Below, piece by piece: positions 48,578-63,700 of a stretch of 64,000 bases of DNA. How positions within the stretch are numbered: the stretch's first letter is position 1; every line of letters begins with the position of its first letter. The stretch spans positions 3,658,001 to 3,722,000 of the forward strand of contig NZ_LR594659.1 of NCBI RefSeq assembly GCF_901827155.1, given 5' to 3'. The translations under genes and the position numbers were made by a program. This DNA comes from Variovorax sp. PBL-H6. Its GTDB lineage: Bacteria; Pseudomonadota; Gammaproteobacteria; Burkholderiales; Burkholderiaceae_C. Below the pieces are notes generated by a model, which did no database searches, was not told the origin of the DNA, and saw only the letters and a program-made list of their open reading frames with translations.

Positions 48578-51260
48578 TCAAGGGACGCGCGTCGAGCGCC
48601 CAGCCGCATTCCCCGGCCGCGACTTCGCCACCTCGGCAGGCCCCGACCTGCGCCACCATTTCTCGATCTCGACCGTCGCGAAGACCAGGGCCGCGCATGC
48701 AAGGCATATCGCCAGTTCGCCGATGGCCAGCGCTTCGGTGCGAAAGACTTTCTGCAGCGGCGGCAGGTAGACCACCGCCAGTTGAAGCAGGAAGGTTGAG
48801 AGCACGGCGCCGGCCAGCGGCCAGTTGCTGCCCAGCCCTTGCGTGAAGATCGAGTCACTTTCCGAACGGATGGCCAGCACATAGGTCATCTGCGAGAGCG
48901 TCAGAACCGTGAACACCATGGTCTGCCAATGCATCCCCGTCGCCAGGGCCCAGGCCTGGACGCCCAGGCACAACGCGCCGATCAGGAGTCCGACCCACAG
49001 CGCGTGCTGCCAGAGGCCACCGGCGAACAGGCTCTCTCCGGGCGGGCGCGGCGGCCGCTGCATGACGCCGCGTTCAGCCGGTTCGGCAGCGAGTGCCAGT
49101 CCGGGCAGGCCGTCGGTGACCAGGTTCACCCACAGGATATGCAGAGGCAGCAGCGGGATCGGCATCCCCACGAGCGGCGCAAGCACCAGGGTCCAGGTCT
49201 CCGCCGAATTGCCGGTGATGGCGTAGCGGACGAACTTGCGGATGTTGTCGAAGATGCGCCGGCCCTCGCGCACGGCAGCCACGATGCTGGCAAAGTTGTC
49301 GTCCAGCAGAACCAGGCTCGCCGCTTCGCGTGCAACATCGGTCCCGCCGCGGCCCATGGCGACTCCGATGTCGGCCTGCTTGAGCGCCGGCGCGTCGTTG
49401 ACGCCGTCCCCCGTCATCGCGACGAACCGGCCCCGGGACTGCAGCGCGCGCACGATGCGGATCTTCTGGGCCGGGTCGACTCGCGCGTACACGCGCACGT
49501 CGTCAGCCAACCGTTGCAGCGCCAAGTCGTCCAGCGCAGCGAGTTGCGACCCCGTCAGGACCATCGAGCCGGTCTCGGCGATGCCGACTTCCCGCGCGAT
49601 GGCAAGCGCGGTCGCCGGATGGTCGCCGGTGATCATCACGGGCGTGATGCCCGCCGAGCGGCAATCGGCGACGGCGGCCTTCGCCTCGGGTCGCGGCGGG
49701 TACTGCCAGGCCCACGAGGCCCAGCAGGACCAGATCGGTCTCGACCAGCTCCGAGGACTGCCCGCTTGGATCCTGCGTGCACACGCGACGAGCCAGTGCG
49801 AGAACGCGCAGGCCCTGCTCAGCCATCGCCCCCGCCGCGGCGAGTGCCTGAGCAACGTCGAGCGGGTCTTCCTGCTGCCCCGCAGCAACGCGTGTGCAAC
49901 GCGGCACCAACGTCTCAGGCGCTCCCTTGACGACGACGAGCCAGCCCTGGCCATCCCGATGCAAGGTGCTCATCCGCTTGCGTCCGGCGTCGAACGGCCA
50001 TTCGTGCAGACGAGGCTGGGCACGGCGCACCGCTTGGGCGTCGGTCCCGCCGGCCTGGGCCGCTTCGACCAGTGCAGTCTCGGTCGGGTCGCCGACCCAC
50101 GCGCCGCCGGCGTCCGGAGCGGCGTCATTGCACAGCACGGCCGCGTTCCACAGCGCCTGCGGCGTCCCGCCGCCGGGAAACTCGACAACCTGCACCTGCA
50201 TGCGGTTCTGCGTCAGCGTACCGGTCTTGTCCGAGCAGATGACGCTGACCGATCCCAGCGTCTCCACGGAGGGCAGACGCCGCACCAGGGCGTTCACCTT
50301 CACCATCCGGCGGGCACCCAGGGCAAGCAGCACGGTCACGATGGCCGGCAGCGCCTCCGGAATCGCCGCCACCGCAAGGCTGATCGCCGTGAGCGCCATC
50401 AGGAGCAACGGCTCGCCATTGAGCACGCCGATGCCGAAAAGCAGCCCGCAAATGCACAGGACAATGAGGGACAGTCGCATGCCGAAATCAGCCAGGCGCA
50501 GTTGCAGGGGGGTTCTTCGCGCGCCGGTGTCGCGCAACAAGCCGGCGATGCGTCCCAGTTCGGTCCTCGGTCCGGTGGCGACCACCAGGCCTTCCCCGCG
50601 CCCATGGCTGACCAGCGTTCCCTTGAAGGCCATGTTGAGCCGGTCGCCAGTTGGATGCTGGCCCTCCGGAAGGCGGGCGTTGTGCTTCTCCACGCTGACG
50701 GATTCCCCGGTCAGCATGGACTCGTCCACGCGCAATTGCGCCGTCCGATGAAGCCGCAGGTCGGCAGGTACCAGATTGCCCGCCTCCAGAAGCACCACGT
50801 CACCCGGCACCAGGTCGGCCGTGTCGATCGCCTGGGCACAACCATTGCGCCGCACGGTCGCATGAGCCGCGGCCAGCCGCTTCAATGCGTCCAGCGCCCG
50901 TTCCGCGCGCCACTCCTGCGTGAGGCCGACCGCTGCGTTGAGCAGAACGATGACCGCGATGGCGATGGTGTCCGCGAAATCTCCGATGAAGCCGGACAGC
51001 AGCGCTGCCGCAATCAGCACCAAGACCATGAAGTCGCGCAGCTGTTCTAGCAGCCGCCTGGCCCAGCTGCGCGGGACAGCCTCGGGCAACCGGTTCTCCC
51101 CGTAGCGGCCTTGTCGCTGCATCACCTGTTCCGAGGTCAGGCCGAACTGCGGATCGACCTCCAGACTGGCGGCAAGTGCCTCCGCAGAATGCAGGTGCGC
51201 GTCATCGGTCAACAGGCCACGATCGGACCCCGTGACGATCGCGACGGGATCATGGCTCAC
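48578..51260 (-). pseudogene. Cation-transporting P-type ATPase with a +1 frameshift
   Basis: About 890 residues across two frames encode a PacL/SERCA-like type II P-ATPase. The first part has a cation-ATPase N-domain, TGES loop, IPEALPAIVTVLLALGARR (M4), and phosphorylation motif SDKTGTLTQ. It then breaks at about 49701, where the usual GADPPRPE reads with one extra base (GTAC for GAC). The second frame continues with MITGDHPATA, MTGDGVNDAPALKQADIG and the C-terminal membrane helices to 48578. Everything else is intact, so this is a recent mutation or a sequencing error. The GTG start overlaps the universal-stress-protein stop (GTGA). Confidence 0.85.
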
Positions 51261-51757
51261 GCTTCGGCAACGGCAGGCGATGCCGCCGCGAAGCCGCCTT
51301 CCTCATCTTCCGGCTGGCCTCTCACCAGCAGCACGGGAACCGGAGACATGCGCAGCACCTGCTCGGCATCGCTGCCCAGCAGCGCTCGCGCAACGCCATG
51401 ACGCCCGTGCGTGCCGATCACGATGAGCTCGGCCTTCCATGCCTTCGCCTGCTCGACGACCACCTCCGAGACACGGCCGGCGAGCGAGGTGAAGAGGGCG
51501 CTCTCCGCCTCGATCCCGGCTAGGCGCGCGCGCTCCCTCCCCTGTTCGAGGACTTGCCTGCCCGCTATCGCCATCAGTGGAACCACGTCACCGCTGTACG
51601 TGGCGAAAGTCTCGAAGCCGGTCACATACTTCAGCTCGTCCACCACGTGAACAAGCCGCAGCGTCGCGCGTGTCAGCTTGGCTAGATGCAGCGCCTCGTC
51701 CAGGCCTCGCAACGAGGTCGTGCTGCCGTCGATCGGGACAAGGATGCGCTGGTACAT
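51257..51757 (-). CDS. Universal stress protein (UspA family)
   Basis: A 166-residue cytoplasmic protein. The N-terminus YQRILVPIDGSTTSLRGLDE is the standard UspA start, and the ATP-binding motif G-x2-G-x9-GS is present as GTHGRHGVARALLGS. The gene is translationally coupled to the ATPase. An exact FNR/ANR box (51818-51831) lies 61 bp upstream, so low oxygen should induce the pair. Related Usp proteins in other bacteria belong to dormancy or anaerobic-survival regulons. Confidence 0.92.
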   Translation of the reverse strand: MYQRILVPIDGSTTSLRGLDEALHLAKLTRATLRLVHVVDELKYVTGFETFATYSGDVVPLMAIAGRQVLEQGRERARLAGIEAESALFTSLAGRVSEVVVEQAKAWKAELIVIGTHGRHGVARALLGSDAEQVLRMSPVPVLLVRGQPEDEEGGFAAASPAVAEA

Positions 51758-51817: not shown

Positions 51818-51831
51818 TTGATGCACATCAA
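51818..51831 (-). promoter_or_regulatory. FNR/ANR box upstream of the universal stress protein gene
   Basis: TTGATGCACATCAA fits TTGAT-N4-ATCAA exactly and is an inverted repeat. A class II start point about 41 bases downstream would fall near 51783, leaving a 26-base leader. Confidence 0.75.
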
Positions 51832-51902
51832 TCCGAAGGCGCGTGCCGCTGCCTGCTGCCTGCTGACTGCTGCCGCGCAATCTGAACGATGTCCTTGGTT
51901 CA

Positions 51903-51916
51903 TTGATCCAGCGCAA
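51903..51916 (+). promoter_or_regulatory. FNR/ANR-like box upstream of phaC
   Basis: TTGATCCAGCGCAA matches the left half-site exactly and the right half at three of five bases. The same 14-mer occurs at 54641 and 62936. It lies 55 bp upstream of the phaC ATG. Confidence 0.6.
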
Positions 51917-51971
51917 CCGTTCTTTCTCTGCCCTGGCGGAGCATCGGCTCACCAACATTCGAAATTCCAAG

Positions 51972-53696
51972 ATGGATGACAACGTAGACGCCAGGGTGGA
52001 CCGCACGCTGCATGCCCAGCTTGCCGAGCTGACCAAGGGCATTTCCCCCGCGGCGCTGATGCAGGCCTGGTCGGACTGGGCCATTCACGTGGCGGCGCAG
52101 CCCGCGCGCAGCGCGCAGCTGCTGATGGTCCGCCCGCTGATGCAAGCAACGGAAGCCGCGCTACAGGGCTTTGGCTCATTGCCTTCCCATCGTCCTGAGA
52201 CGCCCGATCCGAACGAGGACGATCCTCGCCTCGCCAATCCACTCTGGGATGCATGGCCCTACAGCGTCTACAGGCAGGCGTTCCGTGCCGGCAGCCAGTG
52301 GCTGCGCGAGCTGACCGAAGGTGTGCCGGGCGTCGAGCGCCATCACGAGCAGGTCGTGTCCTTTTCCGCGCGACAGCTGCACGCCATGTGCTCGCCCGCG
52401 AACTCGCCCGTCACGAACCCGCTGGTGTTGCAGAAGACACTCGCCTCCGGCGGCATGAACCTGCTGCAAGGCGGGCGCAACTGGATGGAAGACCTTCAGC
52501 GCAGCCGTGACCACCTGCCGCCCAAGGGCGCAGAGGCCTTCGTGCCCGGACGCGAGGTGGCGCTCACGCCCGGCAAGGTGGTCTTGCGCAATCGGCTGAT
52601 CGAGCTGATCCAGTACGCGCCTGCGACCGCCACCGTTCACCCTGAGCCGGTGCTCATGGTGAGCGCCTGGATCATGAAGTACTACATCCTCGACCTGTCG
52701 CGGCGCAATTCGCTCATTCGCTATCTCGTCGACCAAGGCCACACGGTATTCGTCATCTCGTGGAAGAACCCGGACGCGCAAGACCGAGACCTTGGAATGG
52801 ACGACTACCTCGCGCAGGGGCTGATGGCCAGCATCGACGCCGTCTCAGCCATTACCGGCGATCAGCGCGTGCACGCACTCGGTTATTGCCTGGGCGGGAC
52901 CCTGCTGGCCATCGGGGCGGCAGCCATGGCGCGCGACCATGACGATCGTCTGGCAACGGTCACCCTCTTGGCTGCGCAGACCGATTTCACCGAGCCGGGC
53001 GAGCTCAGCCTCTTCATGGACGAGAGCCAGCTCTGCTTCATCGAAGACATGATGGCCCGACAAGGCTTCCTGAAGGCGGAACAGATGGCGGGCGCTTTCA
53101 ACATACTTCGTGCTGTCGATCGCATCTGGTCGCCCATGGTGCAGAACTACCTGCTCGGCGAGCGTGCGCCGTTCACCGACCTCATGGCGTGGAACGCCGA
53201 CGGCACACGCATGCCCTACCGCATGCATGCGAACTATCTACGCAGCCTGTTCCATGACAACGAACTCGCGCGCGGGCGTTATCGCGTGAATGGGCACCCG
53301 GTCTCGCTGCGCGACATCGAAGTGCCGATCTTCGCCGTGGGAACCTGGACGGACAATGTCGCGCCCTGGCGGTCGGTTTACAAGCTCAACCTGCTTTGCG
53401 ACACGGAGATCTGCTTCGTCCTGACGGACGGCGGCCACAACGGCGGCATCCTCAGCGAGCCCGGCCACGCGCATCGCCACTATCGAATCCTGCAGCGCAC
53501 CGGCGATGCCGCCTACGTGCCGCCCGACACCTACGTGGCGCGCGCCGAGCGGGTCGACGGCTCGTGGTGGCCCGCACTACAGCACTGGCTGGCAGATCAT
53601 TCCGGGCCCCGTCGCAAGGCGCCGCGCATGGGTCATCCACAGCGCGGCTACCCGCCGATCTGCGATGCACCGGGCACATACGTCCTCGCCCGATGA
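51972..53696 (+). CDS. phaC: Polyhydroxyalkanoate synthase
   Basis: A 574-residue PHA synthase that polymerises (R)-3-hydroxyacyl-CoA into storage granules. The lipase-like box GYCLGGT holds the catalytic Cys306; the catalytic Asp is in WTDNVAPW and the His in GGHNGG. The length and the N-terminal domain with NPLWDAWPYSVYRQAF suit class I. The ATG at 51972 is chosen over upstream in-frame starts. It is divergent from the usp gene and close to phaB, and an FNR-like box lies upstream. No thiolase (phaA) is in the window. Confidence 0.93.
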   Translation: MDDNVDARVDRTLHAQLAELTKGISPAALMQAWSDWAIHVAAQPARSAQLLMVRPLMQATEAALQGFGSLPSHRPETPDPNEDDPRLANPLWDAWPYSVYRQAFRAGSQWLRELTEGVPGVERHHEQVVSFSARQLHAMCSPANSPVTNPLVLQKTLASGGMNLLQGGRNWMEDLQRSRDHLPPKGAEAFVPGREVALTPGKVVLRNRLIELIQYAPATATVHPEPVLMVSAWIMKYYILDLSRRNSLIRYLVDQGHTVFVISWKNPDAQDRDLGMDDYLAQGLMASIDAVSAITGDQRVHALGYCLGGTLLAIGAAAMARDHDDRLATVTLLAAQTDFTEPGELSLFMDESQLCFIEDMMARQGFLKAEQMAGAFNILRAVDRIWSPMVQNYLLGERAPFTDLMAWNADGTRMPYRMHANYLRSLFHDNELARGRYRVNGHPVSLRDIEVPIFAVGTWTDNVAPWRSVYKLNLLCDTEICFVLTDGGHNGGILSEPGHAHRHYRILQRTGDAAYVPPDTYVARAERVDGSWWPALQHWLADHSGPRRKAPRMGHPQRGYPPICDAPGTYVLAR

Positions 53697-53815
53697 CACC
53701 CGGACACCATCGCGATGGTCCGGACGAAGAACGATGGACAGCCAGGCACGCGTTGACGAGAATCGACATCCTCGGCGCTTTGTCACTCTGGTGGAATTCC
53801 CGCAAGGAGATCGAG

Positions 53816-54505
53816 ATGGCCAAGGCTCATTTGAACTTCGTCGCGCAGGCGTCACGCCGATTCAAGATGGTGGGCGCAGGAGTCGCATTCGTGTTCTTGA
53901 CGCTTGCGCTAGCGCCATCCGCAGAAGTCCGCGCTCAGGTCTACACCGTGCTCGATACGGCGGGTACCGCGACATCCCGCACGGCATTCAGCGTCTCTGG
54001 TTCCACGGGGCAGTTGATAGGCAGCGCCCAGCTGGTCGGACCGCAGTTCACGCTGACGCAACGATCGGTACTGACCAAGATCGAGGCCTTGGTGAACAAC
54101 TGCGCCGTCATGATCGCGGGCGTTCCCCAATGTCCGAACACGCTGCCGTTCGTGGTGCAGATTCGTCGCTCAATCAATGGCGCGCCTGATCCTCGCCTGC
54201 TGATCGCCGCCGTCCCTCTGACGCATGACAACGACCCACTGACTGTGTCCATGGAAAGCGCCGCGTTGGACGAAGTCCCGCTGGAGCCGGGAACCTACTT
54301 TGCGCTCTTCGCCCCCCAGCAGGAGTCGGATGCCGGCTTTCTGCTGTCCAACGCGAATGGGGGCGCTTATCAGGCCGGCATGACGACTATCGGCATTGTC
54401 ACTTTCAGTGGGAGTTTTGCCGATACAGGTTTCGTGGCCGTGCGGATTGCGGCCAAAGTCGTTCCTCTCCATAAGCACGCAAGTCGCGATCACGAAGATC
54501 GCTGA
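53816..54505 (+). CDS. Exported protein of unknown function
   Basis: A 229-residue product with a signal peptide (residues 1-42, ending near VRAQ). The mature part is beta-rich, with TLTQRSVLTKIEALVNNCAV, LPFVVQIRRS and YFALFAPQQES, which suggests a jelly-roll or PEP-CTERM-like beta sandwich, but no sorting signal is seen at the C-terminus. AAGGAGATCGAG precedes the ATG at 53816. It sits 119 bp after phaC. Family not recognised. Confidence 0.65.
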   Translation: MAKAHLNFVAQASRRFKMVGAGVAFVFLTLALAPSAEVRAQVYTVLDTAGTATSRTAFSVSGSTGQLIGSAQLVGPQFTLTQRSVLTKIEALVNNCAVMIAGVPQCPNTLPFVVQIRRSINGAPDPRLLIAAVPLTHDNDPLTVSMESAALDEVPLEPGTYFALFAPQQESDAGFLLSNANGGAYQAGMTTIGIVTFSGSFADTGFVAVRIAAKVVPLHKHASRDHEDR

Positions 54506-54640
54506 CGAGGGCGCGGCTCCGGTCGGCCCCAAGGGCGGCAGGCATCGCGCGCCGACAAGTCCATCTGGTTGGGCAGCGCCGAGCCATAGGCGCGCTCGTG
54601 CCTTGGAGGCGCTCGCCTGCGCTGACCCGCCTTCGTTCCC

Positions 54641-54654
54641 TTGATCCAGCGCAA
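54641..54654 (+). promoter_or_regulatory. FNR/ANR-like box upstream of the mini-BON/phaB unit
   Basis: TTGATCCAGCGCAA, identical to the boxes at 51903 and 62936. A -10-like TACCTA (54673-54678) is at class II spacing. The box is 101 bp upstream of the remnant ATG. Confidence 0.6.
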
Positions 54655-54755
54655 GGCCCCGGGATGGTTGCGTACCTAAAGTCATGTTGACAGCCGCCGC
54701 AGCACTGGATCATCAGCGCCGAGGCTGACTCCCACCGACTTGCGAAAGGACCCAC

Positions 54756-54866
54756 ATGAAATCCGATGCTCAACTCAGAAGCGACATCGTCGCCGAACTG
54801 ACCTGGGGCCCGGCCATCACACGCGGCGTTGCGCACGTGATCGACAACCTCGTCGTCGAGCCTTGA
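54756..54866 (+). pseudogene. Internal-deletion remnant of a BON-domain gene (36-codon leader ORF)
   Basis: The ORF reads MKSDAQLRSDIVAELTW at its start and [13 protein letters not shown] at its end. These match the first and last residues of the triple-BON protein at 63047 (MKPDAMLRSDIVAEL and GVANVVNNLLVGD), with about 180 residues missing between them and the frame kept. The stop is two bases before the phaB ATG, so the remnant could serve as a leader for phaB. GAAAGGA precedes its ATG. The FNR-like box upstream is the same as at the full-length gene. Confidence 0.75.
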
Positions 54867-54868
54867 GC

Positions 54869-55588
54869 ATGCGCATCGCACTGGTCACCGGCGGCACTGC
54901 TGGAATCGGAGCGGCCGTTGCCGAAGCCCTGCAGGGCGCAGGCTACCGCGTTGCCGCCAACTACGGCACCAACACGGAGGCTGCGCACGCATTCTCCAAA
55001 CGCACGGGCATTCCTGTTTTCGCTTGGAACGTCGCCGATTTCGATGCATGCCGGGATGGTGTCTCCCGCGTGCAGGCGGAGCTCGGACCGGTCGAGGTCC
55101 TTGTCAACAATGCGGGGATCACGCGCGACTCCATGCTGCACAAGATGACCCTGGAGCAATGGCGCGAGGTGCTCGACGTGAACCTGGGTGGGTGCTTCAA
55201 CATGTGCCGCGCCGTGATCGAGGGAATGCGCGAGCGGCGCTTCGGGCGCATCGTCAATGTGGGCTCGGTGAACGGGCTTTCGGGCCAGGCCGGCCAGTGC
55301 AACTACGCGGCGAGCAAGGCCGGGCTCATCGGATTCACCAAGTCGCTTGCGCTCGAAGGTGCCACGCGCAGCATCACTGCCAACGTGGTGGCGCCCGGTT
55401 ATACCGACACCGGCATGGTCGCTGCCGTTGCGCCCGAGGTCCTGGCGCAGATCCTCAAGGCCGTGCCCCTGGGCCGACTGGCCACACCCGACGAGGTGGC
55501 CCGCGCGGTCGTCTTCCTGGCGTCCGACGAGGCTGCCTTCATCACCGGCATCACCTTGTCGATCAACGGCGGCAAGTACATGTCCTGA
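54869..55588 (+). CDS. phaB: Acetoacetyl-CoA reductase
   Basis: A 239-residue short-chain dehydrogenase that makes (R)-3-hydroxybutyryl-CoA for PhaC using NADPH. The motifs are TGGTAGIG (7-14), NNAG (80-83), S133, Y146 and K150, and the C-terminal [10 protein letters not shown] is typical of PhaB. It begins two bases after the mini-BON stop. The nearby phaC uses its product. Confidence 0.9.
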
Positions 55589-55635
55589 GATGCCGCCAAC
55601 CTGCCTGCCCTCTTACTTTTGTCTTCGGAGTTCCC

Positions 55636-56667
55636 GTGCAAACAATGAAAGCAGCCGTTGTCCGCGCTTTTGGACAACCCCTCGAGATTGAAGAAGTGGT
55701 CATCCCCGAGGTGCCGCCGGGCCAGGTGCTGGTCAAGGTTGCGGCATCAGGCGTCTGCCACACCGATCTGCATGCCGCTGACGGCGACTGGCCGGTCAAG
55801 CCGACCCTGCCCTTCATCCCTGGCCATGAGGGCGTCGGCCACGTGGCGGCCGTCGGGTCCGGCGTGAAGGATCTGAAGGAGGGTGACCGCGTGGGCGTGC
55901 CGTGGCTGCACACCGCCTGCGGCCACTGCGAGCACTGCATCACCGGCTGGGAAACGCTGTGCGACCACCAGCAGATGACCGGCTACACCGTCAACGGCGG
56001 CTACGCGGAGTACGTCCTTGCCGATCCCGGATACGTGGGCCATCTTCCGGCGAATGTCGGCTTCACGGAGATCGCGCCGATCCTGTGCGCCGGAGTCACC
56101 GTCTACAAGGGCCTGAAGGTGCTCGACTGCAAGCCGGGTGACTGGGTGGCGATCTCGGGCGTCGGCGGACTGGGCCACCTGGCGGTGCAGTACGCAAAGG
56201 CCATGGGCTTCCACGTCGTCGCGGTCGACATCGACGAAGAAAAACTGCAGCTTGCCAAGGAGGTCGGCGCCGACATGCTTGTCGATGCCTCGAAGCAGGA
56301 CCCGGCACAAGCGGTGCAGAAGGCCCTGCGCGGTGCGCACGGCGTGCTGGTGACGGCGGTGTCCCGCACGGCCTTTGCCCAGGCGGTGGGCATGCTCCAC
56401 AAGCGGGGCACCATGTCGATGGTCGGACTGCCGCCGGGTGACTTCGCGCTGCCGATCTTCGACATGGTGCTCAATGCCAAGACCGTTCGAGGGTCGATCG
56501 TCGGAACCCGCAAGGACCTTCAGGAAGCGCTGGAGTTCGCGGCCGAAGGCAAGGTGCGAACCGTATGCAGCGAAGACCGCCTCGACAACATCAACCAGGT
56601 CTTGGACAGGATGCGCCACGGCCAGATCGAAGGCAGGGTCGTCATGCGCCTGACCGACGAGGCGTAG
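55636..56667 (+). CDS. adhP: Zinc-dependent alcohol dehydrogenase (AdhP type)
   Basis: A 343-residue cytoplasmic medium-chain dehydrogenase. The catalytic zinc ligands are in GVCHTDLH and GHEGVGHV, and the structural zinc uses four cysteines in the stretch CGHCEHC to LC (about 95-112). The NAD-binding motif is [16 protein letters not shown] chose GTG 55636 because GGAG lies five bases upstream; ATG 55645 would leave too long a spacing. Reducing aldehydes to alcohols would regenerate NAD under low oxygen, which fits the island. Confidence 0.9.
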
Positions 56668-56693
56668 CGGCCGGCAGCACACAAGGAACATAA

Positions 56694-57068
56694 ATGAACC
56701 ATCTGAGCGTTACCGATTGCGATGCATTCGCCGAAAGGCTCGAACTCATGAAGCGCAGCGTGCTGGAGGAACTGTACCGCGCCATTGTCATGGACGAGAG
56801 TGCGCGCGAGTCTTGGGATCACGAGGTGCGAAGCCACGCTGACGAAGCCGAAGCTCTCCGGCTCGAAGACCTGCGCGGCGTCGAGGTGGAGATCGACCGC
56901 GCCCGGCTCGAGGATATTCGCCAGGCCCAGCGGCGCATGGCCGAAGGCCGCTACGGCGTCTGCTCCGATTGCGCCGAGAACATCCCGCGCGAAAGGCTGC
57001 TGGCGCAGCCCGCGGCCATCCGCTGCGCCGCTTGCCAAGCCGCTCTCGAGGCTCCGCATCGCCGGTAA
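56694..57068 (+). CDS. DksA/TraR-type C4 zinc-finger protein
   Basis: A 124-residue protein. The zinc finger has C90, C93, C111 and C114 (CSDC and CAAC), preceded by a long charged helix (about 10-85) that should form a coiled-coil-like hairpin. DksA relatives bind RNA polymerase through the secondary channel and adjust transcription with ppGpp. Key acidic tip residues cannot be confirmed here. It follows adhP by 26 bp. Confidence 0.85.
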   Translation: MNHLSVTDCDAFAERLELMKRSVLEELYRAIVMDESARESWDHEVRSHADEAEALRLEDLRGVEVEIDRARLEDIRQAQRRMAEGRYGVCSDCAENIPRERLLAQPAAIRCAACQAALEAPHRR

Positions 57069-57217
57069 AAGATCAATAAGCCGTGGAGCGGCGCGCTGCC
57101 GCCGAAGCGGCAGACCCAGCGATCCAAAAGATCCTGGCCGATATCGGCCATCGACCTCTGCCACGCCAGCTCAACAATTAACGACTCGCCTCTTCTTCGA
57201 GGGACTAACATGTCCAG

Positions 57218-57955
57218 GTGACCGCCCCCACCCACCTCGCCGTCCTTGATGATGAAGTCGAGATCACCACCTTGCTCTCGGGCTATCTGCACGGGCAAGG
57301 ATTCCGTGTCAGTCAGCTGCACGCCGGCCCGGCGCTCCTGGAACTCATGGCGAGCGACCCCCCGGCGCTGGTGCTGCTGGACCTGGGCCTGCCCGGCGAA
57401 GACGGCTTCGCCATCGCCCGCCAGCTGCGCGAGCACTGGCGCTGCGGCCTGGTGATTGTCACCGGCCGCGGGGATGCGGTCGACAAGGTGGTCGGCCTTG
57501 AGGTCGGTGCCGACGACTACGTGACAAAGCCCTTCGATTTGCGCGAACTGGTGGCGCGCATCAAGGCCGTGCTGCGCCGGATGGTCCCTTCGGAGCCTGG
57601 GCAGGCCACCAGGCCGGGCGCCGAAGAGGCGAACCTGCTGCACTTTGCCCGCTGGGAACTTGACACGTCCGCGCGCCGCCTTCTGGACCCGAACCGCAGG
57701 GAGGTGGCGCTCACCACGGGCGAGTTCGACCTGCTCAGCACGCTGGCCACTCACCCGGGCCGGGTGCTGTCGCGCGACTTCCTTCTCGACGCCACTCGAG
57801 GCCGCGACGGCGGGCCCTTCGACCGCACCATCGATGTCCAGATCGGGCGCTTGCGCCGCAAGCTGGAGGACGACTCCAACAATCCGCAGATCATCAAGTC
57901 GGTCCGGGGTGCAGGCTACATCCTGGTTCCCAGGATCGAATCCGGGCGGGCCTGA
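57218..57955 (+). CDS. OmpR-family response regulator without adjacent kinase
   Basis: A 245-residue regulator. The receiver domain has LDDE near residue 11, phospho-acceptor D55 (LVLLDLGLPG) and the conserved KPFDLRELVARI. The winged helix ends in DVQIGRLRRKLEDD and VRGAGYILVP. The start is a GTG at 57218. No histidine kinase lies within several kilobases, so its partner is elsewhere. Confidence 0.9.
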   Translation: MTAPTHLAVLDDEVEITTLLSGYLHGQGFRVSQLHAGPALLELMASDPPALVLLDLGLPGEDGFAIARQLREHWRCGLVIVTGRGDAVDKVVGLEVGADDYVTKPFDLRELVARIKAVLRRMVPSEPGQATRPGAEEANLLHFARWELDTSARRLLDPNRREVALTTGEFDLLSTLATHPGRVLSRDFLLDATRGRDGGPFDRTIDVQIGRLRRKLEDDSNNPQIIKSVRGAGYILVPRIESGRA

Positions 57956-58093
57956 GACATGGCGCTCAGCGTTCTCATCGGGATACCTCCCGTTGACACA
58001 GTGTTTCCCGCCGTATGCACTTCGTTCGCGATACAGACGCGCAGCGCGCCTAGATTGGCGTCATGGCATCACCCGCCTATCCAGGAGACCATG

Positions 58094-58303
58094 ATGAACA
58101 CCTCGCATGCTTCCCACGCCTACGAATTGCGTTTCAACTCCCTCTTCGCGGATCGCCGTTCCTTTTCGTTTCCTTGCGATGCGACCGGCCGCGTCGACAT
58201 GGATTCGCTGAGCGAACGCGCTCTCAACAACTACCTGTATGCGCGCGCGGTGATGGGAATGGAAGTGTCATGGCCGGACGTGCGTGCGAGCGCCCGGCAC
58301 TGA
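58094..58303 (+). CDS. Small protein of unknown function
   Basis: A 69-residue product starting MNTSHASHAYELRFNSLFAD. AGGAG is six bases before the ATG at 58094 (58091 is also in frame). A mixed alpha/beta pattern, FPCDATGRVDMDSLSERALNNYLYARAVMGME, looks conserved but is not assigned to a family. A -35-like TTGACA lies at 57993-57998. It follows the response regulator gene. Confidence 0.6.
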   Translation: MNTSHASHAYELRFNSLFADRRSFSFPCDATGRVDMDSLSERALNNYLYARAVMGMEVSWPDVRASARH

Positions 58304-58379
58304 CAGCAAGCGCCGCCCTCGTGATGTTGCTGCTCGGGGCGAAGAAGACGCTGCTTCGTAAGCGGCAGGGACGTGGATG

Positions 58380-58430
58380 ACTCCCCGCCCCCCGCACAGA
58401 TCCATACGTGCGGCACTACCGCATACGGCG
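58380..58430 (-). other. Possible group II intron-like hairpin remnant
   Basis: On the minus strand GCCGTATGCGG, a short loop and CCGCACGTATGG form an imperfect hairpin followed by ATCTGTGCGGGGGG. This resembles the conserved hairpin that precedes the reverse-transcriptase region of some group II introns. No intron ORF or domain V is seen nearby, so at most a relic remains. Confidence 0.3.
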
Positions 58431-58481
58431 TGTCGCCGATCCGGTGCTCGAGGAATCGCGTGAGCCAGGCCTGGGCGGTGG

Positions 58482-59363
58482 TCATCGCATGCTTGCGGCA
58501 ATTCGCGCAGCGTCCTTCGAAGGAGGCAACCCGAAGGCACGCGCGTATTCCCGGCTGAACTGGGTTGAGCTTTCGTACCCCACCTCATGCGCAACGGAGG
58601 TGACGTTGGCGCCGGCGGAAATCAGCAACGTTCTGGCCTGCAGCAGGCGGGTCTGCTTCTGGTACTGCAAGGGACTGAGGGTCGTTGCCGCCTTGAAGTG
58701 ACGGTGGAACGCCGAGACGCTCATGGCCGCATCTTCGGCGAGTTCCTCCATGCGCAACGGACGCGCAAACTCTTCGCGGATACGTTGGACCACGCGGTTG
58801 ATTCGCGCCAAGGAGGTTTCCGGCGTCGCGATGTCACGCAGCATCCAGCCCATGGGCCCCTGCAGCACTCTGTAGAGGATTTCGCGCTCATAGGCCGGGG
58901 CCAGCGCCGGGATGTCCGCGGGATGGCCCATCAACCGCAGCATCCGGACCCAGGCATCCAGCAACTCCGGAGTCACTGCTGCGACCGAGAAGGCTGATTC
59001 CTGGCCGGCGAAGTCGGCAGTTTCAGGCAAATCGGACAACAAGCTGGCCAGTACAGCGGGCGCCAGGGTCAGACTCACGGCAAGGTACGGGGCACCCGAG
59101 CTGGCGCTGCGCACCACACCCGCCGCCGGGAGCTCGATGGACATCACGAAGTAGGTGGCCGGGTCGTAGTGCAGCGTCTGCCTACCCACGGTCATCGACT
59201 TGCTGCCCTGCAAGATGACGTTGACCATGGGGTCATAGACGGCGGCAAGCTCATGCTCCGGGATGGCCCCCTGCACCATCGCCACACGAGGAATGCCCGT
59301 TTCAGTCCGCTTGTTCTGCGCATGAGCCGCCAAGCTTCGAAGCTCTTTCAACTGTTCTTCCAT
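58482..59363 (-). CDS. AraC-family transcriptional regulator
   Basis: A 293-residue regulator. The N-terminal AraC_N-type domain has PRVAMVQGAIPEHELAAVYDP (about 22-42), and the C-terminal double helix-turn-helix spans about 185-285 with MEELAEDAAMSVSAFHRHFK and VTSVAHEVGYESSTQFSREY. The ATG at 59363 is chosen (MEEQLKEL). It is divergent from the truncated SDR gene. Regulators of this type often control adjacent oxidoreductase genes, so the truncation may have removed its original target. Confidence 0.88.
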   Translation of the reverse strand: MEEQLKELRSLAAHAQNKRTETGIPRVAMVQGAIPEHELAAVYDPMVNVILQGSKSMTVGRQTLHYDPATYFVMSIELPAAGVVRSASSGAPYLAVSLTLAPAVLASLLSDLPETADFAGQESAFSVAAVTPELLDAWVRMLRLMGHPADIPALAPAYEREILYRVLQGPMGWMLRDIATPETSLARINRVVQRIREEFARPLRMEELAEDAAMSVSAFHRHFKAATTLSPLQYQKQTRLLQARTLLISAGANVTSVAHEVGYESSTQFSREYARAFGLPPSKDAARIAASMR

Positions 59364-59498
59364 GGCGCGATTGGACTGCGGCCGGCCCCCCGGCACAAGC
59401 GATGGAGCAGGAATAGGCAGGAACGAGGCAGGAACAGGTGGGCGACGGCGCGCGCAAAAACCTATCGTGGAGGCACTGAAATCCACTGGAGCCATGCA

Positions 59499-59792
59499 AT
59501 GGAAACCGTCGTCATCACCGGAGGCAGCCGAGGCATCGGCGCGAGCGCCGCTATCGAATGCGCTCGTCGTGGACTGGGCGTCATCCTGACCTACAAGCAG
59601 AACCCGAACGCGGCAGAGGGCGTCGTTCGTGGAATCGCCGAGGCCGGCGGCCGCGCCGTAGCGCTTCCTCTCGACGTGGCCGCAATCGGGACCTTTGCTG
59701 CCTTCCGGCAGACCGTGAAAGAGGTGCTCACCTCGAAGTGGAGCGAAGCCCGCCTCGACGGCCTGGTGAACAACGCCGGCTACACGATTTGA
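59499..59792 (+). pseudogene. 5' fragment of an SDR-family dehydrogenase gene
   Basis: The first 97 residues of a short-chain dehydrogenase: the NAD motif TGGSRGIG (7-14) and NNAG at the end are intact, but the gene stops at NNAGYTI, before the catalytic serine, tyrosine and lysine. A complete family member is about 240-250 residues. The stop is followed after 11 bp by the VOC-domain gene. The remainder was probably deleted. Confidence 0.75.
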
Positions 59793-59803
59793 AAGGACCC
59801 CAC

Positions 59804-60205
59804 ATGCTCGACCACCTCTTTCTCACGGTCACCGATGTTGACCGTTCCATGGCGTTCTACGAGCGGGTGCTGCCTGTTCTCGGAATCACCAATCGGCACG
59901 ACTACGACGGCAGGGACGGCCCGCCGGGGCACCCAGACCTGAAAGGATTCGGCGCGCAGGGCCGGATGTTCTTTTGGCTTCGGCAGGGAACGGCGGCGCC
60001 CGACGCTGTACACATCGGCTTGGTTGCCGATTCCGAAGAGATGGTCGAGCAGGCCCATGCTGCTGCTCTGGCGGCCGGCGGGGCCGAGATTCATCCGCCC
60101 GGGGCGCAGCTTCATTACGACCCGCGCTACTACGCGGCGCAGGTCCGGGACCTCGACGGCTACAGCCTCGAGTTTGTCTACAAGAGCTGGCAACACGGAC
60201 GCTGA
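59804..60205 (+). CDS. VOC/glyoxalase superfamily protein
   Basis: A 133-residue protein with the single-domain vicinal-oxygen-chelate fold: HLFLTVTDVDRSMAFYERVL at the N-terminus and VRDLDGYSLEFVYK near the C-terminus are the paired beta-alpha-beta modules. His and Glu of these modules may bind metal. AAAGGA precedes the ATG. It follows the truncated SDR gene and could be coupled to it. The substrate is unknown. Confidence 0.85.
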   Translation: MLDHLFLTVTDVDRSMAFYERVLPVLGITNRHDYDGRDGPPGHPDLKGFGAQGRMFFWLRQGTAAPDAVHIGLVADSEEMVEQAHAAALAAGGAEIHPPGAQLHYDPRYYAAQVRDLDGYSLEFVYKSWQHGR

Positions 60206-60306
60206 GCGATGCCGAAAAAAAAGGATTTCGCTGCGCACGACACGTCGCGGCGCCCCTAACAATCATGACCCGGGCCATTGGCCGCTGGGTGCTGAAAGTG
60301 CAAACG

Positions 60307-60471
60307 ATGAAGAGACTGATGATTTATGGCGCCGCGGGCTACACCGGTGCCATGGTGGCGGAGCATGCAGCCTCTGCCGGACTGGACCTCATCATTGCCG
60401 GTCGTGAACAGAGCCGCAGGGCTCTTGAGGCAAGGGTCGCGACAGACAACGCCTTGGCATCGAGTCGGCTA
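60307..60471 (+). pseudogene. 5' fragment of a saccharopine-dehydrogenase-like (enoyl reductase) gene
   Basis: The frame begins MKRLMIYGAAGYTGAMVAEH and continues LDLIIAGREQ, the Rossmann N-terminus of trans-acting enoyl reductase/saccharopine dehydrogenase-like proteins, which are normally about 350-400 residues. The similarity fades after about 55 residues; the frame then runs on to 60723 without recognisable content, overlapping the next gene. It is a truncated relic. Confidence 0.6.
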
Positions 60472-60499
60472 TCGGAGCCGGCAAAATGGAGGATTGTTG

Positions 60500-61318
60500 A
60501 TGCCGGTCAAGGGCCGGGTCGCGGCAAGGCATACCTTCGCAGTTGTGAAGCCTGCCATCACCTCTTTTCCTCTTCGGGCATCGCGCGGCGATCCGCTGGC
60601 TGCGAACCGAATCTTCGCGACCTTCGCCGCAGCTCGCCAGCTGCGGAAGAATGCGCATGCGGCGCCCGCAGGCCCGCCACTGCGCGGCAAGAATCTGGCC
60701 CTGCTGCTCGGGTCATCGCCTAGTGCAGACGTCGCGGCCCTGCGCAACGCCGCTCAGGCACTCGGAGCACGGGTGGCCGAGCTTCGGTTCACCAGGTCCC
60801 AGTATCCGGTTGCTGGACGCGACGACATCGGCGCGCTGGCGCGCGTGCTGGGACGCCTGTACGACGCCGTCGACTGCGAGGCCCTGGAATCGTCGGCCGC
60901 GCATCGAATCGAGAAGGAGGCCGGCATCCCGGTCTATCAGGGCCTTTGCCAGGACGGGCATCCGGCACGCGTCGTGGCGGACCTGATGACGCTGCACGAC
61001 CTCCGTTCGCCGCCCGGAGCGTCGATCCTGTTTGTCGGCGATCCGGAGACAGCCCGTGCCAGCCACTTCATCTCGGCCGCTCGCGCGACAGGATTCGAGG
61101 TGCTGTTCGATGGCCAGGAAGATCCCATCTCGAAGGACACGACATTCCTGGTAGATGCAAGGCAAGACCCCCACTGGTCACTGCAGGCATCCACCGGCCC
61201 CGTCGACGAGGCCCTGCGTGCGGAGAACCATCGCTGGGTGATGCAAGCCATGCTGCTGCATGGGATCGTCAAGGACTTGAGCGGAGCCGCAGCATCATTC
61301 GAAGGAACCGGGCCTTGA
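60500..61318 (+). CDS. Degenerate ornithine/aspartate carbamoyltransferase-like protein
   Basis: A 272-residue protein. LRGKNLALLLGSS, GALARVLGRLYDAVDCEALESSA and GIPVYQGLCQDGHPARVVADLMTLHDL align with the N-terminal domain of ornithine carbamoyltransferase. The carbamoyl-phosphate loop STRTR is replaced by SPSAD, HPTQ by HPAR, and the ornithine-binding HCLP is missing, so activity is unlikely. GGAGG lies seven bases before the ATG at 60500, which fixes the start. The N-terminal 75 residues are basic and unlike the family. It may be a regulatory or structural relative. Confidence 0.65.
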   Translation: MPVKGRVAARHTFAVVKPAITSFPLRASRGDPLAANRIFATFAAARQLRKNAHAAPAGPPLRGKNLALLLGSSPSADVAALRNAAQALGARVAELRFTRSQYPVAGRDDIGALARVLGRLYDAVDCEALESSAAHRIEKEAGIPVYQGLCQDGHPARVVADLMTLHDLRSPPGASILFVGDPETARASHFISAARATGFEVLFDGQEDPISKDTTFLVDARQDPHWSLQASTGPVDEALRAENHRWVMQAMLLHGIVKDLSGAAASFEGTGP

Positions 61319-61464
61319 CCATTCGCCAACTCGATCGCTTGCTCACAGCGGGCTCGGTCGCCGTGTTCGGCGCCTCGAGCCGCCGCATGGCAAGCGTCGC
61401 TCTCACGGCCTTTGCAGATGCACATTCACCGGTGGCCTCCTTGCCGCAGCCGTTCGGGATTTGA
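61315..61464 (+). pseudogene. 5' fragment of an ADP-forming acyl-CoA synthetase/Pat-like gene
   Basis: The frame from TTG 61315, which overlaps the upstream stop, reads TIRQLDRLLTAGSVAVFGAS. This is the start of the CoA-binding domain of the Pat/acetate-CoA ligase family, proteins of 700-900 residues. The similarity ends after about 25 residues and the frame stops at 61464, inside the FNR box. It is a short relic. Confidence 0.6.
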
Positions 61465-61474
61465 TCTTCATCAA
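61461..61474 (+). promoter_or_regulatory. FNR/ANR box upstream of the Met-rich lipoprotein gene
   Basis: TTGATCTTCATCAA matches the consensus exactly. A -10-like GATACT (61496-61501) is at class II spacing, and the lipoprotein ATG is 46 bp downstream. Confidence 0.75.
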
Positions 61475-61520
61475 ACCCCTGTCGCCTGAGTGTTCGATAC
61501 TGCCGCGAAGGAGTTCGATG

Positions 61521-61907
61521 ATGAAAACCACCCTTCTTGTCGCTGCAACGATTGTGCTCGGGGGCTGTGCATCTCAGTCCACGATGCATCACCCAATGGC
61601 GACGCACGGCCCAGCCGCTCGTTACGACCAACAGATGATGAAGATGCACGAGATGCATCAGAAGATGATGGCCGCGAAGACGCCCGAAGAACGGCAGGCC
61701 CTGATGGCCGAGCACATGCAGGCCATGCAAGGCGGCATGTCGATGATGTGCGAGATGGGCGGCGACGCCACGGGCACGGGCACGGGCATGGGCATGGGCA
61801 TGCAGGCAGGCAGCTCTGCCGACATGGCAAGGCGCTGCATGGACATGAAGGACATGACAACCGAGATGATGCGGGATCGCGAGGCGCCGACACGGCCCGC
61901 CCGGTGA
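61521..61907 (+). CDS. Methionine-rich lipoprotein
   Basis: A 128-residue protein with lipobox LGGC near residue 16 (MKTTLLVAATIVLGGCASQ). The mature part is very rich in Met and His (MHHPMATHG, QQMMKMHEMHQKMMAAK, GTGMGMGMQ), with several MxxM spacings that could bind Cu(I) or similar soft metals. Two cysteines occur in the C-terminal half. GAAGGAG supports ATG 61521; 61518 is also possible. Metal binding is inference. Confidence 0.7.
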   Translation: MKTTLLVAATIVLGGCASQSTMHHPMATHGPAARYDQQMMKMHEMHQKMMAAKTPEERQALMAEHMQAMQGGMSMMCEMGGDATGTGTGMGMGMQAGSSADMARRCMDMKDMTTEMMRDREAPTRPAR

Positions 61908-61959
61908 GGCGGTGGCCCTGCCGGGAAGGAGCGTCCCTCCGCAGACGCCTGCACGGGCG

Positions 61960-62790
61960 TCAATGGGCGACCAGCACCGGCACCGTCATGTGCGCGAGGA
62001 CCTCTCGCGTAACGCCGCCCAGCACCCTCTCGCGCAGACGCGAGTGCCCGTATCCACCCATGACGACGAGATCGGCACCCACGTCCGAGACTCGCGAGAG
62101 CAACGCGTCCGAAGTGTCGATCTCCGTGACATGCTGCTCGACTGTCGCATGCACGCCATGGCGCTGCAGCCAGCGGGTCATCTCCGGAATCAGCAGGTCA
62201 TCTCCCTGGCCCGAAGCCGTGCGCCGGAACGAAACGAGGGTGACCCGGCGCGCATGCGTCAGCAGCGGCAGGGCTTCGCGCATTGCCACGGCGGCGGCGC
62301 GGGAGCCGTCCCATGCCATGAGGACGTTCTGCCCCACCTCCGCGAACTTGCCGGCGTAAGGCACCACGAGCACCGGCCGGCCTGCGTCGAGCATCACCCG
62401 GGACACGAGTCCGCGCACCGGCAGATCAGACTCGCCCGCGCGGTCCTCCTGGCCCACGACGACGAGGTCGCTCGATCGCCCGTGCGCAATGAGCGAGTCG
62501 ATGGTCGTGCCGTCTGTTTCACGAACTTCGTACGATGTCGATCCCACATGGGCCGAGAAGGCGTCACTGATCGCTTGCGCACGTTGCCGCAGGTATCTGG
62601 CGGACTCCGCGATGTAGTCGGTCATGCCCGTGGGAAGCGCATCTGCTGGAACCGTGCCCTCCAGCAAGCCGCTGGGCAGCAGCCCGATCAGATGGGCGCC
62701 CTGCGTCCTGGCGATGCCGTGCGCGACATCGACGCGGGCACTGCACCTGTCGGTATGGTCCAGGTGAACGAGGATGGTCTTGATGTTCAT
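61960..62790 (-). CDS. Two-domain universal stress protein
   Basis: A 276-residue protein with two UspA-type domains. Domain 1 starts MNIKTILVHLDHTDRCSARV but lacks a clear ATP motif. Domain 2 starts near residue 150 (GQNVLMAWDGSRAAAVAMRE) and has GGYGHSRLRERVLGG, which fits G-x2-G-x9-G. An FNR box (62872-62885) lies 81 bp upstream. AGAAGGGAC precedes the ATG at 62790. Likely induced under oxygen limitation. Confidence 0.9.
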   Translation of the reverse strand: MNIKTILVHLDHTDRCSARVDVAHGIARTQGAHLIGLLPSGLLEGTVPADALPTGMTDYIAESARYLRQRAQAISDAFSAHVGSTSYEVRETDGTTIDSLIAHGRSSDLVVVGQEDRAGESDLPVRGLVSRVMLDAGRPVLVVPYAGKFAEVGQNVLMAWDGSRAAAVAMREALPLLTHARRVTLVSFRRTASGQGDDLLIPEMTRWLQRHGVHATVEQHVTEIDTSDALLSRVSDVGADLVVMGGYGHSRLRERVLGGVTREVLAHMTVPVLVAH

Positions 62791-62871
62791 GACTCGATGT
62801 CCCTTCTCGACATGTGCACCCGGCAAGATGGCGCGGTGCAGCGATCTTCGCGGTGAAGGCACCAGACAGCC

Positions 62872-62885
62872 TTGATGTTCATCAA
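62872..62885 (-). promoter_or_regulatory. FNR/ANR box upstream of the two-domain Usp gene
   Basis: TTGATGTTCATCAA matches TTGAT-N4-ATCAA exactly and lies 81 bp upstream of the ATG at 62790. Confidence 0.75.
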
Positions 62886-62935
62886 TGCCGAGGGCGACTT
62901 CTGGAGTCCGGCAGCCTCTTCGATTGCCAGCCCTC

Positions 62936-62949
62936 TTGATCCAGCGCAA
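62936..62949 (+). promoter_or_regulatory. FNR/ANR-like box upstream of the BON-domain gene
   Basis: TTGATCCAGCGCAA, identical to the sites at 51903 and 54641. A -10-like TACAGT (62972-62977) is at class II spacing. It lies 97 bp upstream of the ATG. Confidence 0.65.
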
Positions 62950-63046
62950 GGCGCGGCTTTCCCGTACTTTCTACAGTGAGCCTATCGCCACCGCGCGTCG
63001 GAGCGCGCGATGGCAGTTCACTCCAAACCACCGCCGAGGACAGCTC

Positions 63047-63700
63047 ATGAAACCCGATGCCATGCTGAGAAGCGATATCGTTGCCGAACTGAATTTCGAT
63101 CCAGTCATCACTGCCACCGATGTCGGCGTGATCGTGAAGGACGGCGTGGTCACCCTGACTGGCTACCCGTCGAGCCATGCCGAGAAGCACGCCATCGAGC
63201 GCGCCGTGCAGCGGGTCAAGGGAGTGAAGGCAGTGGCGATAGAAATGCGGGTAAAGCTTCCCTCTGCTCATGAGCGTACCGACGTCGACATCGCCGCGGC
63301 AGCCGAGCACGCCCTCGAGTGGCACGTGCTGGTCCCCGAAGACAAGATCCATCCGATCGTGGAGAAAGGCTGGGTGACGCTCAGGGGCGAGGTCGAATGG
63401 GAGTACCAGCGCAGCGCTGCGGAGGTTGCCGTGCGCGACCTGCTCGGCGTCGCGGGTCTCACGAACCGCGTTGTGGTCAAGCCGAAGTTCACGCCCGCAG
63501 ACATCGAAGAGCGGATTCGGACGGCGCTGGAGCGCCAGGCCGATGACGAGAGCCGTCATATCCACATCTCGGTCATGGGCAGCGATGTGTCCCTGCGCGG
63601 AAAGGTGCATTCCTGGGCCGAACGCAAGGCCGCCCAGGATGCAGCCTGGTCGGCACCTGGAGTGGCCAACGTGGTGAACAATCTGCTGGTGGGAGACTGA
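63047..63700 (+). CDS. Triple BON-domain protein
   Basis: A 217-residue protein with three BON repeats at about 5-70, 78-145 and 150-215. Each shows the pattern VxxGxVTLxG, for example VKDGVVTLTGYP, VEKGWVTLRGEV and MGSDVSLRGKV, with GVxxVxN/xR ends. BON domains bind lipid or envelope components in OsmY-type stress proteins. No signal peptide is evident, so it may be cytoplasmic. GAGGA precedes the ATG. The 5' and 3' ends are duplicated in the remnant at 54756. Confidence 0.9.
   Translation: MKPDAMLRSDIVAELNFDPVITATDVGVIVKDGVVTLTGYPSSHAEKHAIERAVQRVKGVKAVAIEMRVKLPSAHERTDVDIAAAAEHALEWHVLVPEDKIHPIVEKGWVTLRGEVEWEYQRSAAEVAVRDLLGVAGLTNRVVVKPKFTPADIEERIRTALERQADDESRHIHISVMGSDVSLRGKVHSWAERKAAQDAAWSAPGVANVVNNLLVGD

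What the first reader, a model, noticed from the sequence alone, without database searches (positions are those of the whole stretch)
51818..62949. Six FNR/ANR-type boxes define a likely low-oxygen regulon across the island
Three sites match TTGAT-N4-ATCAA exactly (51818, 61461, 62872) and three share one identical variant TTGATCCAGCGCAA (51903, 54641, 62936). Each lies upstream of a gene of the same kind of function: two universal stress proteins, phaC, the mini-BON/phaB unit, a Met-rich lipoprotein and the BON protein. At 54641 and 62936 a -10-like hexamer is at class II distance. FNR/ANR control of Usp and PHA genes is known in other bacteria; the shared variant with CGCAA as right half is the less usual part.
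Basis: partly seen in the sequence, partly recalled or inferred. Interest (0 to 1): 0.8.

Follow-up and report, generated by a model that had tools for sequence, protein, structure and literature searches.

The report
FixK-type low-oxygen regulon in Variovorax
A block of stress-survival genes in a soil bacterium is dotted with matching DNA switches of a known type that normally turn genes on when oxygen runs low, and a likely controlling protein can be named; the switch type is known, the island and its probable controller are new examples.

Summary
The six boxes are real and at the stated coordinates. They belong to a larger set: 19 intergenic FixK2-consensus boxes over about 34 kb, seven of them in the window. 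The nearest named relatives are Variovorax. The 'less usual' 14-mer TTGATCCAGCGCAA is printed as a FixK-type box of Bradyrhizobium nosR. In 28 of 30 same-genus BON loci a TTGAT-N4-CGCAA box is kept in one orientation between diverged flanks, with a conserved -10 block 22 bp downstream, the class II distance. An FNR-family regulon is well supported by sequence; response to oxygen is untested. The regulator is probably not FNR/ANR alone. The genome has a four-cysteine FNR, but across 101 genus genomes the BON gene follows a different FNR-like protein without the Fe-S cysteines (43 of 45 BON genomes; FNR in 23 of 45), and 38 genomes have that protein without an FNR ortholog. It resembles the FixK2 regulon of Bradyrhizobium and the Burkholderia lxa locus: a new member of a known kind.

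The parts
51818..51831 (-). Box TTGATGTGCATCAA for the divergent Usp gene; nAnnnT (GAAACT) at 51795-51790, gap 22
51903..51916 (+). Hybrid box TTGATCCAGCGCAA for phaC; nAnnnT (GAGCAT) at 51939-51944, gap 22; same box and hexamer at the closest same-genus ortholog (L251)
51257..51757 (-). Universal stress protein (PF00582)
51972..53696 (+). phaC, PHA synthase (PF07167, PF12551)
54641..54654 (+). Hybrid box TTGATCCAGCGCAA, with -10 TAAAGT at 54677-54682 (gap 22)
54756..54866 (+). 'mini-BON', 36 codons; first 28 residues match the BON paralogue at C1:3738198 at 17 of 28; probably a BON gene that has lost its middle
54869..55588 (+). phaB-type acetoacetyl-CoA reductase (TIGR01829 over its cut-off)
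55696..56667 (+). Zn-dependent alcohol dehydrogenase, third gene of the BON-reductase-dehydrogenase order seen in V. boronicumulans (called start uncertain)
60497..60510 (+).
60500..61318 (+). OTC-like protein (PF02729 N-domain only); true start probably downstream of the box (inference)
61461..61474 (+). Box TTGATCTTCATCAA, GATACT at 61496-61501 (gap 21)
61518..61907 (+). Met-rich putative lipoprotein (lipobox by eye), no Pfam match
61960..62790 (-). Universal stress protein with two Usp stretches
62872..62885 (-). Box TTGATGAACATCAA for the divergent Usp; nAnnnT (GAAGAT) at 62849-62844 (gap 22)
62936..62949 (+). Hybrid box TTGATCCAGCGCAA for the BON gene; -10 TACAGT at 62972-62977 (gap 22); the site with the strongest conservation evidence
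63047..63700 (+). BON-domain protein (PF04972, 3 stretches)

Best explanation
The boxes are binding sites of an FNR-family activator. Each sits where a class II activator sits: 21-22 bp between the box and a weak -10, which puts the box centre about 41 bp upstream of the inferred start. They switch on a low-oxygen survival island of Usp, BON, PHA and other stress genes. The likely dedicated activator is an FNR-like protein without the Fe-S cysteines (FixK type), encoded about 660 kb away at C1:3049643-3050374, possibly together with the four-cysteine FNR at C1:3047091-3047807. Both carry the E-(T/S)-V-S-R recognition helix expected for TTGAT half-sites. Palindromic and hybrid (TTGAT/CGCAA) boxes are read by the same protein or proteins. 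Shown: site identity, clustering, position between genes, conservation, spacing, co-occurrence with the regulator gene. Inferred: binding, oxygen as the signal, which regulator acts.
For: Genome-wide clustering with zero controls. 21 of 22 strict boxes in 240 kb not inside called genes. Hexamers with 4 or more matches to TATAAT: 6 at gap 21 and 8 at gap 22 among 38 box-gene pairs, 2 in total at the other 16 gaps. BON: hybrid box in 28 of 30 same-genus loci, exact 14-mer in 25 of 30; box columns 93-100% conserved, most flank columns 30-60%, second conserved block at the -10. phaC: a box in 18 of 26 same-genus loci against 0 of 104 coding slices, all 18 with nAnnnT at gap 21 or 22 after one of their boxes (26 of the 30 fetched loci were used). 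The identical 14-mer precedes an MFS gene and a narG-type nitrate reductase run at C1:3007167, and is printed as a FixK-type box in B. diazoefficiens, axis 40.5 bp from TSS1. BON x FixK-like protein 43/2/27/29; BON x FNR 23/22/18/38. Mean hybrid boxes: FixK-like protein without FNR ortholog 4.3 (n=38), neither 0.5 (n=22).
Against: No expression or binding data. The 101 genomes are related, so the p-values overstate. Two of 45 BON genomes lack the FixK-like protein: G106 (has FNR, 5 boxes) and G107 (fragmented draft). 27 of 70 genomes with the protein have no BON ortholog and 20 of 70 have fewer than 3 boxes. FNR also goes with 3 or more boxes (30/25/11/35), and FNR-only genomes (n=9) average 1.7 boxes against 0.33 control, so FNR may read some. 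In this strain the regulator gene is not in the island. Other Crp-type HTH matches exist in the genome (26 matches to PF13545 in all) and were not tested. 8 of 26 phaC loci show no box within 350 bp, and only 20 of 80 of the wider set have one within 250 bp. Autoregulation of the regulator gene is not supported. FixJ-like proteins match in 101 of 101 genomes, so the upstream signal is unresolved.
Confidence: 0.72

Rival explanations
1. Classical FNR (ANR type, 4Fe-4S) alone controls the island.
For: A bona fide FNR is encoded at C1:3047091-3047807 (NCBIfam Fnr 232.5 bits, cut-off 228), with C-X2-C-X5-C plus a fourth Cys aligned with FNR and a box upstream at 3047859. Three window boxes have perfect FNR half-sites. 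30 of 41 FNR genomes have 3 or more hybrid boxes.
Against: FNR ortholog (E <= 1e-100) in only 41 of 101 same-genus genomes; 22 of 45 BON genomes lack it. Hybrid boxes persist in 38 genomes that lack it and carry the FixK-like protein (mean 4.3).
Confidence: 0.2
2. Hybrid boxes are read by heterodimers of the FNR and the FixK-like protein, as proposed for Group III promoters of Herbaspirillum seropedicae.
For: Herbaspirillum hybrid half-site promoters and Fnr1-Fnr3 interaction (PMC5934665, abstract and passages). One orientation of the hybrid box in the 28 BON loci that carry it. Both proteins are encoded here.
Against: Hybrid boxes occur in 38 genomes without an FNR ortholog. At phaC, hybrid and palindrome-like boxes replace each other between orthologs. 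The same asymmetric 14-mer is listed for B. diazoefficiens.
Confidence: 0.08
3. The shared 14-mer is only copied DNA (duplicated BON promoters), not a selected site.
For: Three of the five island copies precede BON or mini-BON genes.
Against: Flanks have diverged while the 14 bp stay fixed across 28 loci. The same 14-mer precedes phaC, a Usp-like gene (C1:3729224, assigned by eye) and the nitrate gene run.
Confidence: 0.02

Closest known systems
Bradyrhizobium diazoefficiens FixK2 regulon
   Same: Identical 14-mer TTGATCCAGCGCAA (nosR; oleate hydratase gene); regulated Usp, phaC2, Hsp20, thymidine phosphorylase and MBL-fold genes (passages of PMC5582078, PMC6710368, PMC9104804)
   Different: The Variovorax protein is only distantly related to FixK2 (PDB 4i2o, 58 bits, against 104 bits for the best FNR chain). 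Control by FixLJ is not shown here.
Burkholderia cenocepacia low-oxygen-activated (lxa) locus
   Same: About 50-gene low-oxygen locus with six Usps, a heat-shock protein and a BON-domain protein; Anr/FixK-type BCAM0049 suggested as regulator (passages of PMC6127331 and PMC9733578)
   Different: No lxa box is given in the passages I saw; the original paper (Sass 2013) is not held and was not read. Gene order was not compared.
Herbaspirillum seropedicae Fnr1/Fnr3 regulons
   Same: Betaproteobacterial FNR paralogues; direct control of phaC1 and dksA-phaC2-fabI; a hybrid half-site class (abstract and passages of PMC5934665)
   Different: There the hybrid sites are linked to two Fnr proteins; here hybrid boxes persist in genomes where no FNR ortholog was found.
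FNR/ANR regulon (E. coli, Pseudomonas; motif recalled)
   Same: TTGAT-N4-ATCAA boxes at class II spacing; FNR gene present
   Different: Hybrid boxes outnumber perfect palindromes in the island (10 against 3 in C1:3622-3782 kb); many genus genomes with the BON gene lack FNR

Membership tests
FixK2-type regulon | Boxes fit TTG(A/C)-N6-(T/G)CAA | tested here: met
   All six boxes and the seventh fit; consensus, boxes
FixK2-type regulon | Crp/Fnr regulator without N-terminal Fe-S cysteines, with E..SR recognition helix | tested here: met
   No C-X2-C-X5-C in 20 of 20 open frames. Cysteine positions of 30 further ortholog segments show no such spacing, but some of these segments lack the first residues. 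Helix conserved. E..SR as a requirement is recalled
FixK2-type regulon | Box axis near -40.5/-41.5 at class II promoters | tested here: inconclusive
   Spacing to -10 hexamers fits; no mapped transcription starts
FixK2-type regulon | Regulator gene controlled by FixLJ | tested here: inconclusive
   FixJ-like proteins (best about 45%) in all 101 genomes, not discriminating
FNR/ANR regulon | Four-cysteine FNR encoded | tested here: met
FNR/ANR regulon | Island boxes require FNR | tested here: inconclusive
   Not needed for presence across the genus: 38 genomes with FixK-like protein and no FNR ortholog, mean 4.3 boxes; not decided for this strain
lxa-like low-oxygen locus | Cluster of Usp, BON, Hsp20 and related stress genes | tested here: met
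   Usp, BON, beta-CASP and nucleoside phosphorylase; Hsp20 and ClpB assigned by eye
lxa-like low-oxygen locus | Induced by low oxygen | not testable with these tools
   No expression data
Fnr heterodimer sites (Herbaspirillum Group III) | Hybrid sites depend on two different Fnr subunits | tested here: inconclusive
   Hybrid boxes present in 38 genomes lacking the FNR ortholog speak against it, but other paralogues there were not excluded

The most novel reading that the evidence does not exclude
Variovorax carries a patchily distributed hypoxia-survival regulon run by its own controller: an FNR-family protein without the Fe-S cluster, encoded about 1 kb from the BON gene in at least 19 genomes (though 660 kb away here), and acting in strains that lack FNR. 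It may sense redox through a conserved cysteine pair (C95 and C146, 49 of 50 orthologs by position or spacing), and reads a directional hybrid box whose central step is pyrimidine-purine.
Probability: 0.3. Interest if true: 0.6.

Novelty: new member of a known kind. Interest (0 to 1): 0.42.

Why it matters
If true, it extends the FixK2/lxa type of low-oxygen survival regulon to Variovorax, a soil and root genus. It gives a sharply defined promoter logic (14-bp box, 21-22 bp, weak -10), and it names a testable candidate regulator that appears able to serve the island in strains without FNR. That bears on how aerobes survive hypoxia and how such regulons spread between strains.

Tried and rejected
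Rejected: promoter copying as the reason for the shared 14-mer. Not supported: autoregulation of the FixK-like gene. A box lies upstream of 25 of 30 (a looser pattern set) and 20 of 20 of these genes. But the conserved nAnnnT at class II distance points to the divergent OTC-like gene (34 of 45 rows at gap 21, 17 of 45 at gap 22, at most 3 at any other gap tested). Toward the regulator I saw no such conserved block (judged by eye and column counts). Inconclusive: the FixJ search, where every genome matches. Weak: the wide phaC comparison, 20 of 80 diverse loci with a box against 0 of 480 coding slices, probably because paralogues are mixed.

Dropped rows: one search used 26 of the 30 phaC loci fetched (L276-L279 left out: partial or below 50% identity). 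One search used the 30 BON loci fetched, the top of the ranked list, out of 68 genomes with a match. One search used the 30 regulator loci fetched. The 20 stretches were chosen: 19 for having regulator and BON close together, plus G030.

Errors mended: the first Pfam scan of the Met-rich lipoprotein (protein 5) used a wrong frame; repeated correctly, still no match. No annotation came with the pSymA stretch; FixJ and FixK were recognised there by motif and recall.

Literature: none of the six listed papers holds the word Variovorax, but that search asked for 3 of 4 terms; searches likewise combined terms. No paper on this island was found; this speaks only for those searches and the held library, and only listings were seen there.

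Gene calls come from a simple codon-usage script, so start codons are uncertain. The boxes at C1:3041868 and C1:3049495 lie inside called genes, possibly because of overcalled starts. In the 160 kb region, one search also found boxes inside genes (two within the island span, one of which fits the FixK2 consensus; four outside it) and two intergenic ones outside the island.
Full report
What was checked. The six boxes are exact and at the stated coordinates. In the 6.87 Mb genome TTGAT-N4-ATCAA occurs at 11 places with 0 in the backwards control: 3 in the window, 5 in C1:2988-3048 kb, 3 elsewhere. TTGATCCAGCGCAA occurs 6 times, control 0: 5 in C1:3709903-3738114 and 1 at C1:3007167, all on the + strand of the contig. 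The looser TTGAT-N6-CAA gives 74+75 against 13+16 in the control (symmetric sites count twice; listing cut at 4.17 Mb). In the two regions put together from fetched stretches (240 kb), 21 of 22 strict boxes (8 palindromic, 14 hybrid) are not wholly inside called genes. The called coding fraction is 0.81 in C1:3709-3745 kb and 0.92 in C1:2980-3060 kb.

Extent. The island is not bounded by the finding. With the FixK2 consensus, 19 intergenic boxes run from C1:3709818 to 3743862 (window 51818 to about 85860), seven of them in the window. The seventh, at 60497, overlaps the called start of an OTC-like gene. A second cluster at C1:2988-3055 kb holds a narG-type nitrate reductase gene, a COX1-family oxidase subunit, a FixG-like protein, Usps, the FNR gene and the FixK-like gene.

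Promoter anatomy. Among 38 box-gene pairs, hexamers with at least 4 of 6 matches to TATAAT occur 6 times at gap 21 and 8 times at gap 22, and twice in total at the other 16 gaps tested. In the window, 54641, 62936 and 61461 reach 4 of 6; 51818, 51903 and 62872 reach 3 of 6, with A at position 2 and T at position 6. This is the spacing of class II FNR sites (axis near -41.5; established knowledge, recalled). In B. diazoefficiens the box axis lies 40.5 bp from nosR TSS1 (PMC5582078, passages).

Conservation. The BON protein has a match in 68 of 101 same-genus genomes. Of the 30 best loci (30 genomes, this one included), 28 carry TTGAT-N4-CGCAA upstream and 25 the exact 14-mer, each with TTGAT on the far side. 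Of the other two, L188 has a different FNR-like box and L175 none within 260 bp (its match does not begin at a start codon). Aligned on the box, the 14 columns are 93-100% identical, most flank columns 30-60%, and the next conserved block is TTCCTAcAGTG, with the hexamer TAcAGT exactly 22 bp downstream of the box. For phaC, 18 of 26 same-genus loci have a box within 350 bp against 0 of 104 coding slices, and in all 18 one box has nAnnnT at gap 21 or 22. The box letters differ between orthologs (hybrid in some, palindrome-like in others), which suggests that the two forms are interchangeable.

Hybrid box. The exact 14-mer was found in 3 held papers, all on B. diazoefficiens: nosR and an oleate hydratase gene with lower expression in a fixK2 deletion. 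The variant is therefore a known FixK-type box. In this genome 13 of the 14 hybrid boxes in the two regions have a pyrimidine-purine central step (read), perhaps because such a step bends easily; that is inference.

Which regulator. L027 (C1:3047091-3047807) is a true FNR: NCBIfam Fnr 232.5 bits against cut-off 228, cysteines aligned with FNR. L028 (C1:3049643-3050374) scores 123.5 bits, under that cut-off, lacks the N-terminal cysteines and keeps the recognition helix. Over 101 same-genus genomes, TTGATNYRGCGCAA occurs 378 times against 27 in the control (counts summed; 13 of the 378 are in this genome, from which the pattern was drawn). By E-value limits that I chose (FNR 1e-100, FixK-like 1e-90, BON 1e-70), FNR is in 41, the FixK-like protein in 70 and BON in 45 genomes. 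BON with FixK-like protein: 43 of 45; BON with FNR: 23 of 45. Mean boxes: both regulators 5.9 (n=32), FNR only 1.7 (n=9), FixK-like only 4.3 (n=38), neither 0.5 (n=22); control means 0.2-0.34. The genomes are related, so these are associations, not independent trials, and 27 of 70 genomes with the FixK-like protein have no BON ortholog.

The FixK-like protein. In 19 genomes its gene and a BON gene lie within about 1 kb (coordinates); in the window's genome it lies about 660 kb from the island. I chose those 19, plus G030, for fetching; G001 among them also has FNR. None of the 20 open frames has C-X2-C-X5-C. Cysteines at L028 positions 95 and 146 are both kept in 49 of 50 orthologs: 29 of 30, 20 of 20, counted by position and by their 51-residue spacing. 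How it would sense oxygen is open.

The mini-BON. In V. boronicumulans plasmid NZ_CP138497 the order is Crp/Fnr regulator (opposite strand), OTC-like, BON, beta-ketoacyl-ACP reductase (overlapping BON by 4 bp), alcohol dehydrogenase. The window has box, 36-codon mini-BON, phaB, alcohol dehydrogenase. The first 28 residues of the mini-BON match a full BON at 17 of 28. It looks like a BON gene that lost its middle while its promoter and operon remained.

Judgement. A low-oxygen FNR-family regulon is the best reading (shown: sequence, position, conservation, spacing; inferred: binding and oxygen response). The dedicated regulator is probably the FixK-like protein, with FNR possibly contributing. 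It works like the FixK2 regulon and resembles the lxa locus in content; FixLJ control and oxygen induction are untested. New member of a known kind.

Noticed in passing
window 54756-54866: 36-codon remnant of a BON gene, apparently lacking the middle of the protein, at the head of a phaB-adh operon; V. boronicumulans has a full BON gene at that place
   Followed up: partly
window 48578-51260 (- strand): Two overlapping long ORFs in different frames both read as parts of one cation-transporting P-type ATPase; the gene looks frameshifted (assigned by eye)
   Followed up: no
C1:2999844 (L023) and C1:3036044 (L025): Two TTGCGCTAGCGCAA palindromes, the second upstream of an acetyl-CoA synthetase-like gene; possibly sites of another Crp/Fnr-family regulator
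   Followed up: no
L026:12633-15305: Two further Usp genes in the regulator cluster, each behind a TTGATCTGGCGCAA box; a hemerythrin-domain gene follows the first
   Followed up: partly
L054 and plasmid hits H1-H5: Relatives of the island's phaC (L054) and BON gene lie on replicons labelled plasmids in several Variovorax, while here the island is on the 6 Mb contig
   Followed up: partly
L026:10485-12008: 508-aa protein with an AAA_33 domain, encoded directly downstream of the FixK-like regulator gene
   Followed up: no
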